Shown piece after piece: positions 20,034 to 52,908 of a stretch of DNA of 62,871 nucleotides; the stretch's first letter is position 1, and each line of letters opens with the position of its first letter. The stretch lies in contig CAMLDI010000017.1 of assembly GCA_946478845.1 (NCBI GenBank), positions 1-62,871 of the forward strand, read 5' to 3'. Made by a program: the position numbers and the translations under genes. The notes under the pieces were generated by a model. It was given only the letters and a program-made list of their open reading frames with translations. It was not told the DNA's origin and did no database searches. The stretch comes from an uncultured Paenibacillaceae bacterium (GTDB lineage Bacteria; Bacillota; Bacilli; Aneurinibacillales; Aneurinibacillaceae).

Positions 20034-20097
20034 CTAAAAGGGAAACTAAGGCTAGCGCCATGCCTTTAAAGGCATGGCGCTAGCCAAGTTTTCTTTA
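20034..20097 (-). repeat. Dispersed palindromic element, copy A
   Basis: On the minus strand it begins AAAGAAAACTTGGCT and ends AGCCTTAGTTTCCCTTT. Inside is a perfect 36-base palindrome (20050-20085) centred on CCTTTAAAGG. The ends match copies B (45785), C (52848) and D (30852). It lies between divergent starts of the small membrane gene and cidA. 19965-20033 holds only the ribosome site and likely promoter of the small gene. Confidence 0.8.
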
Positions 20098-20147
20098 TAT
20101 AATTAAGATTGTCTATTTTTAAAACATCATGGCAAAGGAGAAGAAGG

Positions 20148-20516
20148 ATGAAAGTTATCAAGATCATTATCCAGGTTTTCATATTATGTATCTTTTCTAT
20201 TGCCATGAACAAAGCAGTAGAGCTCCTTGATTGGCATATTCCAGGCAGCATCTTAGGCGTTGTTCTTCTTTTTGTTCTCCTTCAAGCCAAAATCATCCGT
20301 CTTGAATGGATTGAATTAGGAGGAAACTGGCTTTTAGCCGAGCTATTGTTATTTTTCATTCCATCTGCCGTTGGGATTATTCAATATAAGGAAATGTTAA
20401 TGAGCAATGGAATTTTTATCATGGTAGTCATTATATTGAGTACCATGATTGTGATGGCCTTTACGGGGGTTTTGGCTAAAAAAATGGCAGAAGGTAAAAA
20501 GGAGAAAAGCCTATGA
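20148..20516 (+). CDS. cidA: CidA/LrgA-family holin-like protein
   Basis: 122 residues, four hydrophobic segments. It carries the family signature around IPGSILGVVLLFVLL and the FFIPSAVGII segment. CidA/LrgA proteins are holin-like membrane pores linked to murein hydrolase control, programmed lysis and, in Bacillus, pyruvate transport (PftA/B-type pairs). The start at 20148 follows GGAGAAGAAGG. It overlaps the lrgB-type gene by ATGA, so the two are translationally coupled. Confidence 0.88.
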   Translation: MKVIKIIIQVFILCIFSIAMNKAVELLDWHIPGSILGVVLLFVLLQAKIIRLEWIELGGNWLLAELLLFFIPSAVGIIQYKEMLMSNGIFIMVVIILSTMIVMAFTGVLAKKMAEGKKEKSL

Positions 20517-21199
20517 TGTTTGCTATCTTTAGTTTTCTCCTCACTGTTGGTTTGTACTGGGGTGGAAAATGGTATTATCAAAAGCAACCAAAAGTGTATT
20601 GGTCTCCTCTTTTGACCACACCTATCCTGGTTATTGTCATTTTATTGAGTACAAATATTTCCTATGAATCCTATTATTCCGGAGGGAAATGGCTAAGTTT
20701 TATGCTGCAGCCTGCAACCATTGCCTTTGCCATTCCCTTATATAAGTACTTTCCTATTTTTAAAAAATACGCCAGGGAAATAATACTGAGCGTATTGCTA
20801 GGGTCAATTGTTGCTGTTATTTCGTCAATGTTCCTGGCAAAAGCCTTTCATTTAAATCAACAAATTACAGAAAGCTTGCTCCCACGTTCTGTAACAACAC
20901 CTATCGCCATCGACATTGCGAAGATCATCGGGGGAGTGCCAGCCATCACAGCAGTTTTCGTTATTATTACTGGTATACTAGGGACTATAATAGGCCCTGC
21001 CATCATTCGCTGGTTGCGGATTGATAATGAAATCGCACAGGGGATTCTTTTCGGCACTGGTGCCCATGCTGCAGGCACAGCGAAAGCCTTTGAATTCAGC
21101 CCTATCACAGGAACCATTTCCAGTTTATCCATGATTATTGCTGCATTTTTTACCCTGGGAATTGCCCAATTGATGGAGTGGATGATTCATTACTTATGA
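20513..21199 (+). CDS. cidB: LrgB/CidB-family membrane protein
   Basis: 228 residues with about seven hydrophobic segments. The signature LLPRSVTTPIAIDIAKIIGGVPAITAVFVIITG (about residues 123-155) and GTGAHAAGTAKAFE are typical of LrgB/CidB/YohK. It forms the partner of the CidA-like protein in a pyruvate-uptake or lysis-control pair. No LytS/LytR two-component genes are next to it, unlike in many relatives. Its end overlaps rlmH, read from the other strand, by 10 bases. Confidence 0.9.
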   Translation: MMFAIFSFLLTVGLYWGGKWYYQKQPKVYWSPLLTTPILVIVILLSTNISYESYYSGGKWLSFMLQPATIAFAIPLYKYFPIFKKYAREIILSVLLGSIVAVISSMFLAKAFHLNQQITESLLPRSVTTPIAIDIAKIIGGVPAITAVFVIITGILGTIIGPAIIRWLRIDNEIAQGILFGTGAHAAGTAKAFEFSPITGTISSLSMIIAAFFTLGIAQLMEWMIHYL

Positions 21200-21666
21200 T
21201 ACGGTTCTCCCTTAATAATCTTAAACCCACGATACACTTGCTCTACCAGAATCAAGCGCATTAATTGATGGGGAAAGGTCATTTTAGAAAAGGACAATTT
21301 TTCATCCGCCCGCTTCAGCACCTGATCAGATAAACCTAAGGAACCGCCAATAATAAAAGCCACAGAGCTTTTTCCATAGGTAGCCCAGGAATCAAGTTTA
21401 TCCGCCAATTTTTCGGAGGGCCACATTTCCCCATCAATGGCCAGGGCCACAACATGCTGGCCATTTTTAATGGCTCCCAGAATTCGTTCCCCTTCCTTTT
21501 CTTTTACCCGAAGCATATCCCCTTCACTTAAATTCTCCGGCGCTTTTTCATCTGCCACTTCCACGATTGTAACACGGGCATAAGCAGACAATCGTTTCAA
21601 ATATTCTTCAATCCCCATCTTCAAGTATTTTTCTTTTAACTTACCCACAGCCACAATTGTAATTTG
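21190..21666 (-). CDS. rlmH: 23S rRNA pseudouridine-1915 N3-methyltransferase RlmH
   Basis: 158 residues, the family length. SPOUT-class knot: the SAM site is made by FIIGGSLGLSDQVLKRAD and the C-terminal FPHQLMRLILVEQVYRGFKIIKGEPYHK (last 28 residues). It methylates pseudouridine 1915 in helix 69 of the 70S ribosome. The start is GTG 21666, 6 bases after GAGGGG; an upstream ATG in the same frame adds an unconserved extension. The B. subtilis name is yydA. Confidence 0.95.
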   Translation of the reverse strand, partial: QITIVAVGKLKEKYLKMGIEEYLKRLSAYARVTIVEVADEKAPENLSEGDMLRVKEKEGERILGAIKNGQHVVALAIDGEMWPSEKLADKLDSWATYGKSSVAFIIGGSLGLSDQVLKRADEKLSFSKMTFPHQLMRLILVEQVYRGFKIIKGEPYHK

Positions 21667-21714
21667 CACAGAAATCCCCTCATTTTTCGACATTTATCTG
21701 ACTTTTTCGTCTAC

Positions 21715-51758: not shown

Positions 51759-52521
51759 TTACTGTTCCTCCCTTAGGAGCAGTTTCTCGATAAATAAAAT
51801 AGGTTTGCGCAATGCTGAACAAGTTACCAATTACCCAGTAAAGGGAAAGGGCAGATGGCAATGAAATAGCAAATACTAAAATCATAATAGGCATTGCATA
51901 AAGCATCATCTTCATTTGTGGATTTTCCATCATCGATGGGCTTTTTCGCATGGTAATCCACTGTTGCAGATAAGTTGTAATTGCTGCAACAATCGGAAGA
52001 ATAAAAAATGGGTCTGCTTTACCTAATTCTAACCATAAGAAATCATGGGAACGAATTTGTTCTGTCCGCACAATGGCATGGTAAAAAGCAATCAAAATTG
52101 GCATCTGCACCAGGATTGGAAGACACCCGCTTAATGGATTAACATTGTGAACCTGGTATAACTTAATCATCTCTTGTTGTGCTTTTTGCGGATCATTTTT
52201 ATATTTGTCTCTAAGTTTAGTTAACTCAGGTTGAAGCTCTTGCATTCTTTTTGAACTCTTCAACTGCTTCATCATTAAAGGCAAAATTAAAAAACGCACA
52301 AGCAATGTAACCACAACAATAGCAAGACCATAACTCCCATTAAATAGGTCTGCAGACTCCATTAACAACCATTTAAAGGGAAACACAAAATACTTGTCCC
52401 AAATGCCGCCGGTTTCAGGGTTAATAGGAAGCGGGTTGTTGGGATTGGCTGCAGTTAAACAACCAGAGGTTAATACAGAAATAGAAAGCAGCATCACTAC
52501 AATACCAAAACGTTTGAGCAA
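51751..52521 (-). CDS. yidC: Membrane protein insertase YidC (SpoIIIJ)
   Basis: 256 residues. Lipoprotein signal with lipobox LTSGC, five membrane segments, the conserved basic residue of the groove (LLVRFLILPLMMKQLK) and the NPLSGCLPILVQMPILIAFYHAI segment. It inserts membrane proteins and, in spore formers, supports forespore SpoIIIA-SpoIIQ activity. Co-transcribed with jag. Confidence 0.95.
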   Translation of the reverse strand: MLKRFGIVVMLLSISVLTSGCLTAANPNNPLPINPETGGIWDKYFVFPFKWLLMESADLFNGSYGLAIVVVTLLVRFLILPLMMKQLKSSKRMQELQPELTKLRDKYKNDPQKAQQEMIKLYQVHNVNPLSGCLPILVQMPILIAFYHAIVRTEQIRSHDFLWLELGKADPFFILPIVAAITTYLQQWITMRKSPSMMENPQMKMMLYAMPIMILVFAISLPSALSLYWVIGNLFSIAQTYFIYRETAPKGGTVNE

Positions 52522-52586
52522 GAAAAATTCCTCCTTGCAGGTATGTATTTTTTAACTCTTTAAATTAAAGAGTTCAATGAAAGTAA

Positions 52587-52805
52587 TTAAGGTACATGGT
52601 CAATCCCGCCAGGATGAAAAGGATGACATTTTAAAATGCGTTTTATGGCCATCCACCCTCCCCGAAAAGGCCCATATTTCTCTATTGCTGTTAATGAATA
52701 TTGAGAACAAGTAGGATAAAAACGACAACTTGGCGGTTTCAAAGGTGAAATCACCATTTGATAAGCTCTAATCATATAAATAAAAATCATTTTTATCCAC
52801 TTCAT
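52587..52805 (-). CDS. yidD: Membrane protein insertion efficiency factor YidD
   Basis: 72 residues. MIRAYQMVISPLKPPSCRF, YPTCSQYSLTAIEKYGPFRGG and HPFHPGGIDHVP are the family motifs. It helps YidC insert membrane proteins. It occupies the usual place between rnpA and yidC. Confidence 0.95.
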   Translation of the reverse strand: MKWIKMIFIYMIRAYQMVISPLKPPSCRFYPTCSQYSLTAIEKYGPFRGGWMAIKRILKCHPFHPGGIDHVP

Positions 52806-52847
52806 TATTAATACTCCCTTATTATGCAGGATTCCTACTATATATTA

Positions 52848-52908
52848 AAGAAAACTTGGCTGAAGCCAGACTTATCTATCTTAGCTGGCAACAACCTTAA
52901 TGTTCCTT
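52848..52908 (+). repeat. Dispersed palindromic element, copy C, at the rnpA stop
   Basis: AAAGAAAACTTGGCTGAAGCC on the left, AGCTGGCAACAACCTTAATGT on the right. The right end overlaps the last codons and stop of rnpA. It is the most diverged of the four clear copies. Confidence 0.7.

What the first reader, a model, noticed from the sequence alone, without database searches (positions are those of the whole stretch)
20034..52908. Family of dispersed palindromic elements (A, D, B, C) of about 60 bp
Four intergenic sites (20034-20097, 30852-30909, 45785-45846, 52848-52908) share left end AAAGAAAACTTGGCT and right end AGCCTTAGTTGTCCTTA, with differing palindromic centres that keep pairing by matched changes (A: perfect 36-base palindrome; B: CGCC/GGCG arms). 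This looks like a REP- or MITE-type family moved by a transposase elsewhere, or an RNA element. None lies in a coding region.
Basis: seen in the sequence. Interest (0 to 1): 0.75.

Follow-up and report, generated by a model that had tools for sequence, protein, structure and literature searches.

The report
Mobile hairpin repeats beside gene terminators
Four short hairpin-forming DNA repeats near a bacterial replication origin belong to a widespread family of gene-less mobile elements that settle next to the stop signals of transcription, including those of some riboswitches; how they move is not yet known.

Summary
A covariance model trained without the window finds these four places (B 3e-13, A 7e-13, D 1e-5, C 0.005) and then nothing below 0.4. 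The window is an oriC region of a Bacillota close to Aneurinibacillus. The 60-bp units are one half of a larger element (about 90-130 bp, two hairpins), complete in the window only at B.

The family occurs in Fictibacillus, Scopulibacillus, a Bacillus sp., Alteribacillus, Desulfosporosinus and, by model, 29 of 398 sampled Bacilli genomes; the exact 15-base end occurs up to 122 times per genome, its reversed control never. Empty sites in relatives show insertion without target duplication. The target is the T-tract of intrinsic terminators: 45 of 85 copies adjoin an A-tract plus hairpin on one side, 0 of 85 on the other, 3 of 359 random places. Three sites lie behind c-di-AMP, SAM and TPP riboswitches. 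Copies form head-to-tail arrays. Stems covary.

They are neither canonical REPs nor MITEs. No gene-bearing copy was found, and Y1 transposase genes show no association (20 of 29 against 29 of 51 genomes). Best reading: non-autonomous elements inserted IS200/IS605-fashion; mobiliser unknown.

The parts
20036..20097 (-). Element A: conserved end TAAAGAAAACTTGGC and hairpin P1 (36-base perfect palindrome); the second half (P2/P3) is not recognisable although the R1 match extends to 19973
   Evidence: R2 63.1 bits E 6.9e-13; R1 49.4 bits; folds z -6.2 and -7.1 on the two strands
30852..30910 (-). Element D: P1 half only; its first three bases (30910-30908) are the stop codon of purA
   Evidence: R2 33.7 bits E 1e-5; R1 only E 0.07; ORF list, sequence
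30811..30847 (.). Intrinsic-terminator-like hairpin next to D: AAAAATCGACACAATT-loop-AATTGTGTCGATTTTT; its T-tract faces the element
   Evidence: read directly in the sequence
45784..45885 (+). Element B, the most complete copy: P1 (45784-45848) plus a second hairpin GGATAAGA...TCTTATCC; lies between noc and a ParA (soj) gene
   Evidence: R1 53.8 bits E 2.5e-8; R2 64.4 bits E 3.2e-13; fold z -6.6 and -6.0; gene families
52846..52910 (+). Element C, degenerate copy overlapping the 3' end of rnpA (stop codon 52899-52897 inside it)
   Evidence: R2 22.7 bits E 0.0053; R1 E 0.0024; ORF list, sequence

Best explanation
The four sites are copies, partly decayed, of a family of non-coding mobile elements spread over Bacillota. 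(stems P2 and P3), ...GATAGTATAAGTGCAACTAAGGC, stem P1 with a variable tip, GCCAAGTTTTCTTTA. Shown: many copies per genome, presence or absence at the same site in relatives, no target duplication, fixed orientation to terminator T-tracts, head-to-tail arrays, base pairs kept by compensatory changes. Inferred: the element moves as a folded single strand, its terminal hairpins being recognised by a trans-acting HUH-type (IS200/IS605-like) enzyme that joins it 3' of a T-rich target. The element's own 3' end (TTTTCTTTA) looks like that target, so new copies can dock behind old ones. The enzyme is not identified. Effects on neighbouring genes (gene ends, terminators, riboswitch leaders) would be side effects of the docking site.
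For: Copies: exact 15-base end 122, 48, 38, 34, 17, 17, 14, 10 and 5 times in nine genomes, reversed control 0 in all nine; model R1 hits in 14 of 16 chosen genomes and 29 of 398 sampled Bacilli. Mobility: a copy behind a tandem c-di-AMP riboswitch is present in G317, G316 and G295 and absent in G252, G153 and G318 with matching flanks; of two copies in L103, site 1 is empty in 11 of 11 relatives aligned, site 2 filled in one (G319), empty in nine, and one aligned too poorly to tell; a paralogous empty site in a Bacillus sp.. No target duplication beyond at most 3 ambiguous bases. Target: of 85 copies that are neither tandem nor in the larger repeat, 79 have A at the third base after the end, 63 an A-run, 45 an A-run plus hairpin; the other side 0 of 85, random 3 of 359. 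Tandem arrays in several lineages. Covariation: 135 doubly changed cells against 48.7 in shuffles, 0 of 500 as high; pair 17-45 of P1 shows all four Watson-Crick pairs with 1 unpaired of 55. Precedent in the same genome: two copies of a Y1 IS of about 0.75 kb in F. nanhaiensis sit directly behind terminator T-tracts and end in TTTTTATTTT.
Against: No Y1 gene in 9 of 29 element-positive genomes, among them copy-rich G336 and G432, and no association overall (20 of 29 against 29 of 51, Fisher p 0.34; the negatives are not matched by phylogeny and were called negative by a scan that scored 8 candidates per genome). No element beside 23 Y1 loci. No gene-bearing copy: of 87 exact ends in G336, Scopulibacillus and the Desulfosporosinus/bin54 set, 65 have a right end within 300 bp; for 19 of the other 22 the nearest genes were scanned and none is a transposase, recombinase or reverse transcriptase (two of the 20 proteins have no Pfam match, three ends not scanned). 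Some pairing measures do not exceed shuffles: in Fictibacillus alone 4 doubly changed pairs against 3.6, in P1 4 against 3.3, with 22 and 33 of 55 rows unpaired at columns 16-46 and 18-44. The alignment was fitted to the structure. Some Fictibacillus loci in the counts are orthologous, so copies are not all independent.
Confidence: 0.55

Rival explanations
1. A mobile family as above, but mobilised through RNA: the folded transcript is integrated behind terminators by a reverse transcriptase, in the way group IIC introns use terminator stem-loops as target.
For: Target type (behind a terminator hairpin and T-tract) is that of group IIC introns (recalled; the abstract of PMC10190682 speaks of a DNA stem-loop target). 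Y1 genes are absent from 9 of 29 positive genomes. Structure is conserved by covariation.
Against: No group II intron match in Rfam for the window and 18 loci. No excess of G-T over A-C cells. Intron-type ends are not seen (recalled criterion). Reverse transcriptase genes were not searched for across genomes.
Confidence: 0.15
2. Functional RNA parts (terminator helpers, antiterminators or 3'-UTR elements) kept for the host's benefit, with mobility only in the past.
For: Stems covary; many copies sit next to terminators, some behind riboswitches.
Against: Presence varies between relatives at the same site; G-T and A-C cells are about balanced; tandem arrays; neighbours are unrelated genes: purA, rnpA, noc and others in the window, asparaginase, SecA, FtsH-like, aldo/keto reductase and others elsewhere.
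Confidence: 0.12
3. A REP family moved by RAYT (TnpA-REP) proteins of the same genomes.
For: RAYT-like Y1 proteins (label by length and motif, recalled) occur in G310, G002, G003, G006, G001, G311 and G314.
Against: No copy beside these genes; no GT[AG]G at the hairpin foot; no association of Y1 with the element.
Confidence: 0.08
4. Ordinary terminators or chance palindromes with similar ends.
For: They lie beside terminators.
Against: R2 E-values in the window, 0 reversed-control matches against up to 122, empty sites.
Confidence: 0.01

Closest known systems
IS200/IS605 ends and their non-autonomous derivatives (Y1 HUH transposases)
   Same: No inverted terminal repeats, no target duplication, insertion 3' of a short fixed sequence, hairpins near the ends, element's last bases resemble the target (definitions from passages of PMC7290912 and PMC6006769)
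   Different: No tnpA found inside or beside a copy; Y1 genes do not track the element; T-tract of terminators as target
REP / RAYT systems
   Same: Short intergenic palindromes in many copies
   Different: Longer, two-hairpin, no GT[AG]G foot, not beside RAYT genes, same ends in several genera
Pneumococcal BOX, RUP and SPRITE repeats (PMC3049150, passages)
   Same: About 100 bp, folded, non-coding, thought mobile; BOX is modular and one BOX sits with two T-box riboswitches; SPRITE is terminator-like and enriched at 3' ends of genes
   Different: Sequences not compared; described there as largely pneumococcal and near relatives; RUP has inverted repeats like IS630
bcr1, Bant-1, Bhal-1 and other stem-loop families of low-GC Gram-positives (PMC2267715, passages with parts of its tables)
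   Same: Stem-loop families of about 70-170 bp in Bacillus
Group IIC introns
   Same: Same kind of docking site (recalled; abstract of PMC10190682)
   Different: No intron match in Rfam

Membership tests
REP (TnpA-REP associated) | GT[AG]G tetranucleotide at the foot of the hairpin | tested here: not met
   conserved columns of A1 and A4 show TAAAGAAAACTT and GCACTTAT at the feet; definition from passages of PMC6006769
REP (TnpA-REP associated) | copies in the neighbourhood of tnpA-REP genes | tested here: not met
   0 of 23 Y1 loci with up to 1.5 kb flanks match R1 at E 0.1; three end-like strings with 2 edits are not elements on reading
MITE | terminal inverted repeats | tested here: not met
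   ends TAAAGAAAAC and, inverted, TAYACTWTC differ; by reading, no separate computation
MITE | target site duplication | tested here: not met
   empty sites; at most 3 ambiguous bases
IS200/IS605-like element | no TIR, no TSD, insertion 3' of a fixed short sequence | tested here: met
   definition from passages of PMC7290912
IS200/IS605-like element | subterminal hairpins at both ends | tested here: met
   P1 and P2/P3; not shown to be bound by an enzyme
IS200/IS605-like element | cognate Y1 transposase in cis or in the same genome | tested here: not met
   none in 9 of 29 positive genomes, no association
IS200/IS605-like element | guide tetranucleotide pairing with the cleavage site | not tested
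   needs the enzyme and a cleavage assay
Group II intron | conserved intron core | tested here: not met
   no Rfam group II match in the window and 18 loci
Known Rfam RNA family | gathering-score match over the element | tested here: not met
   one gathering-score match (TwoAYGGAY in L108) lies outside the element, and weak microRNA-family matches below gathering touch the end of the L017 copy
bcr1 / Bhal-1 type families | sequence identity with the published consensus | not testable with these tools
   consensus sequences not held

The most novel reading that the evidence does not exclude
A single superfamily of gene-less elements, found in Bacilli and in Desulfosporosinus, uses the T-tracts of intrinsic terminators as its docking site, seeds head-to-tail arrays because its own end imitates a T-tract, and is driven by an enzyme that is not a Y1 transposase and not yet recognised; on the way it lands between riboswitches and their genes.
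Probability: 0.35. Interest if true: 0.75.

Novelty: new variant of a known kind. Interest (0 to 1): 0.6.

Why it matters
If right, intrinsic terminators in Bacillota are a repeated landing site for a mobile element that carries no gene, and riboswitch leaders are among its targets. That gives a ready natural experiment: the same riboswitch with and without an insert behind its terminator in sister species. The missing mobiliser is a concrete open question, and copy-rich genomes without a Y1 gene narrow the search. It also gives a recognisable marker to be annotated, instead of hypothetical small RNAs or terminators.

Tried and rejected
Own genome: none held for the window. Chance: rejected. 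RNAalifold on A1 and A2 found only the base of P1 or a short alternative pairing; I then set the structure by hand and tested it by counting. In Fictibacillus alone the number of pairs with double changes was no higher than in shuffles (4 against 3.6, reached by 224 of 500), nor were pair types (353 of 500); only cell counts and score were. In the P1 alignment A4 the same two measures also did not exceed shuffles (172 and 399 of 500), and two columns are often unpaired (22 and 33 of 55 rows). The test across genera exceeds shuffles on all five measures, on an alignment fitted to the structure.

RAYT/Y1 mobiliser: tested and not supported. One Y1 sequence of 16 could not be read in frame (L200). 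Gene-bearing copy: none found, but 22 of 87 ends have no right end within 300 bp in the held sequence (my right-end pattern also misses variant ends such as L398). Phages, plasmids, viral contigs: element L154 against plasmids, L295 against phages and plasmids, and two gapped patterns against viral contigs gave no match; an earlier plasmid search of the noc-soj stretch listed parA/noc-type matches only (20 of 245 records shown). Literature: three motif strings gave 0 papers; six word searches listed related families but no paper that I could tie to this one; a further one led to definitions. The library lacks most subscription papers, so absence from print is not shown. Orientation: 20 of 24 copies in G319 are co-directional (natural orientation) with the replication fork, p 0.0015 (24 of 28 listed rows, four short or non-element rows left out by me; three rows are one array; origin taken near base 0 because the noc region lies there, length taken as 3.9 Mb). 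Genes usually show the same bias (recalled), so this does not decide between replication and transcription.
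Full report
WHAT THE WINDOW IS. The 62.9-kb window carries dnaA, rnpA, yidC, noc, a ParA gene (soj), purA and other genes of an origin region. Its Noc protein is 96-97% identical to four proteins without a name in the listing and 75-79% identical to Aneurinibacillus proteins, so the host is a Bacillota near that genus. No whole genome is held for it.

THE FOUR SITES. A (20036-20097, -), D (30852-30910, -), B (45784-45885, +) and C (52846-52910, +) are one family. To avoid circularity I built a model, R2, from 55 hairpins of other genomes only. Scored without filters over both strands of the window, it gives B 3.2e-13, A 6.9e-13, D 1e-5 and C 0.0053; the next different place is 0.41. 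The older model R1, from 27 full-length Fictibacillus copies, gives B 2.5e-8, A 1.8e-7, C 0.0024 and D 0.07. D is only the P1 half and C is degenerate; B has the two-hairpin plan.

THE FAMILY ELSEWHERE. A scan of one genome for each of 84,980 species with the exact 17-mer AAAGAAAACTTGGCTGA gave 109 stretches. In 36 of them (37 places) the end is followed by the inner motif; these lie in Fictibacillus, Desulfosporosinus, an unnamed Bacillota bin and Bacillus sp. Marseille-Q3570. Some further Desulfosporosinus stretches are copies with extra modules; most of the rest come from unrelated phyla and look like chance matches, which I did not test one by one. With R1, 14 of 16 chosen genomes have matches: 118 in Marseille-Q3570, 54 in F. 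nanhaiensis, 38 in Scopulibacillus, 3 to 28 in five Desulfosporosinus; none in F. macauensis and Neobacillus mesonae (at most 150 candidates per genome were scored). The exact 15-base end TAAAGAAAACTTGGC occurs 5 to 122 times in nine genomes, the reversed control never; in G432 it is absent, its copies having a variant end. In an even sample of the class Bacilli 29 of 398 genomes have a match at E<=1e-4 (8 candidates per genome scored, stricter filters). I read copies from 12 of the 29; they show the same plan, several with end variants such as TTAGAAAACTTGGC. Element L154 against plasmids, L295 against phages and plasmids and two patterns against viral contigs gave nothing.

ANATOMY. The middle differs strongly between genera, and Desulfosporosinus and G336 carry extra hairpin modules in the loops, while the ends stay. 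Aligned to R1, 46 distinct copies from the window and from genomes other than the 18 Fictibacillus ones show 18 of 25 pairs with changes on both sides (shuffles 12.2), 135 such cells against 48.7 (sd 5.3) in shuffles and at most 37 when partners are slid (the alignment is fitted to the structure). In the free alignment of P1, pair 17-45 has GC 18, UA 16, AU 14, CG 3, three wobble pairs and one mismatch of 55, but two neighbouring column pairs are unpaired in 22 and 33 of 55 rows, and the number of doubly changed pairs (4) is not above shuffles (3.3). G-T and A-C cells are about equal (41 and 36), which gives no sign that one strand acts as RNA; this is weak evidence.

MOBILITY AND TARGET. In Fictibacillus, G317, G316 and G295 have a copy where G252, G153 and G318, otherwise matching, have none: GTTGCCTTTTTT|element|CCGAAGTGGAGG in G317 against GTTGCCTTTTTTACCGAAATGGAGG in G153. 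Rfam shows that this T-tract follows a tandem c-di-AMP riboswitch (seen in L317 and its ortholog L325); among the nine loci given to that search two others follow a SAM and a TPP riboswitch, five none. Two more sites in F. nanhaiensis were compared with 11 relatives: site 1, in the noc-soj interval next to parS, is empty in all 11; site 2 is filled in G319, empty in nine, unclear in one. In Marseille-Q3570 a larger repeat exists with and without the element. None of these shows a target duplication beyond at most three ambiguous bases. Over 108 distinct ends found by pattern in the held loci, 14 are tandem junctions and 9 lie in that larger repeat; of the other 85, 45 have an A-tract plus hairpin on the right side, 0 on the left, and random places 3 of 359. 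Read on the other strand, the element stands directly 3' of a terminator T-tract. Arrays (4 units of about 105 bp in Scopulibacillus, 4 ends 89-90 bp apart in D. metallidurans, others of 2 to 4) join AGTA or AGTG to TAAAG: the simplest reading is that the new copy has used the old copy's A-rich end as target.

MECHANISM. No terminal repeats, no duplication, a fixed sequence on one side, hairpins near both ends and an own end like the target are marks of IS200/IS605 elements (passages of PMC7290912 and PMC6006769). In the same F. nanhaiensis genome two copies of a Y1 IS of about 0.75 kb (one with a stop inside the matched gene) also stand directly behind terminator T-tracts and end in TTTTTATTTT; one in D. 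fructosivorans seems to. This makes the analogy good, but the enzyme is not shown: Y1 genes are present in 20 of 29 positive and 29 of 51 negative genomes (p 0.34), are absent from copy-rich G336 and G432, and were not found beside a copy. A gene-bearing copy was sought: of 87 exact ends in G336, Scopulibacillus and the Desulfosporosinus/bin54 loci, 65 have a right end within 300 bp; for 19 of the other 22 I scanned the nearest 20 open frames, of which 18 match ordinary host families (for example SecA, asparaginase, FtsH-type peptidase, acetolactate synthase subunit) and 2 match nothing; none is a transposase, recombinase or reverse transcriptase. Loss of the enzyme after spread, another HUH enzyme, or an RNA route remain open.

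VERDICT. A real and much larger thing than reported: a family of non-autonomous, terminator-seeking palindromic elements, not matched by Rfam and not found in print by the searches named; a match with families whose sequences I could not see, such as Bhal-1 or bcr1, is not excluded.

Noticed in passing
L173-L189 (Bacillus sp. Marseille-Q3570) flanks: Many of the copies read sit inside a larger repeat (GGAGCGGAAATCAACGACTTT ... CAAGAGCAACAAAGTTTGCGAAAACAGCC) that also occurs empty (3 places) and seems to have spread as a composite.
   Followed up: partly
L191, L198 (F. nanhaiensis), L192 (D. fructosivorans): IS200-like Y1 elements stand directly behind intrinsic terminators; the right end TTTTTATTTT of the Fictibacillus one resembles the target.
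   Followed up: partly
window 45784-45885 and L103:865-988: In the window host and in F. nanhaiensis copies sit in the same noc-soj interval, in the latter beside a parS site; since relatives lack it, the two look independent. The window has parS-like sites at 44329, 44485 and 46816.
   Followed up: partly
L317/L325, L333, L332: Elements lie behind c-di-AMP, SAM and TPP riboswitches, between their terminator T-tract and the following gene.
   Followed up: partly
L215-L264, L388-L405: Extra hairpin modules (CGAAGACACTGTCTTCGCACG; ACGCATAAACACAGCAGTTTACTGCTGATGTGTTGCTAATGC) are nested in the loops of several elements and recur between copies.
   Followed up: no
window 21748-21756 and 21891-21899: Two exact DnaA boxes (TTATCCACA) about 32 kb from dnaA, besides those around dnaA.
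   Followed up: no
window 52897-53253: The last residues of RnpA are encoded within element C, so an insertion may have changed the protein's C-terminus.
   Followed up: partly
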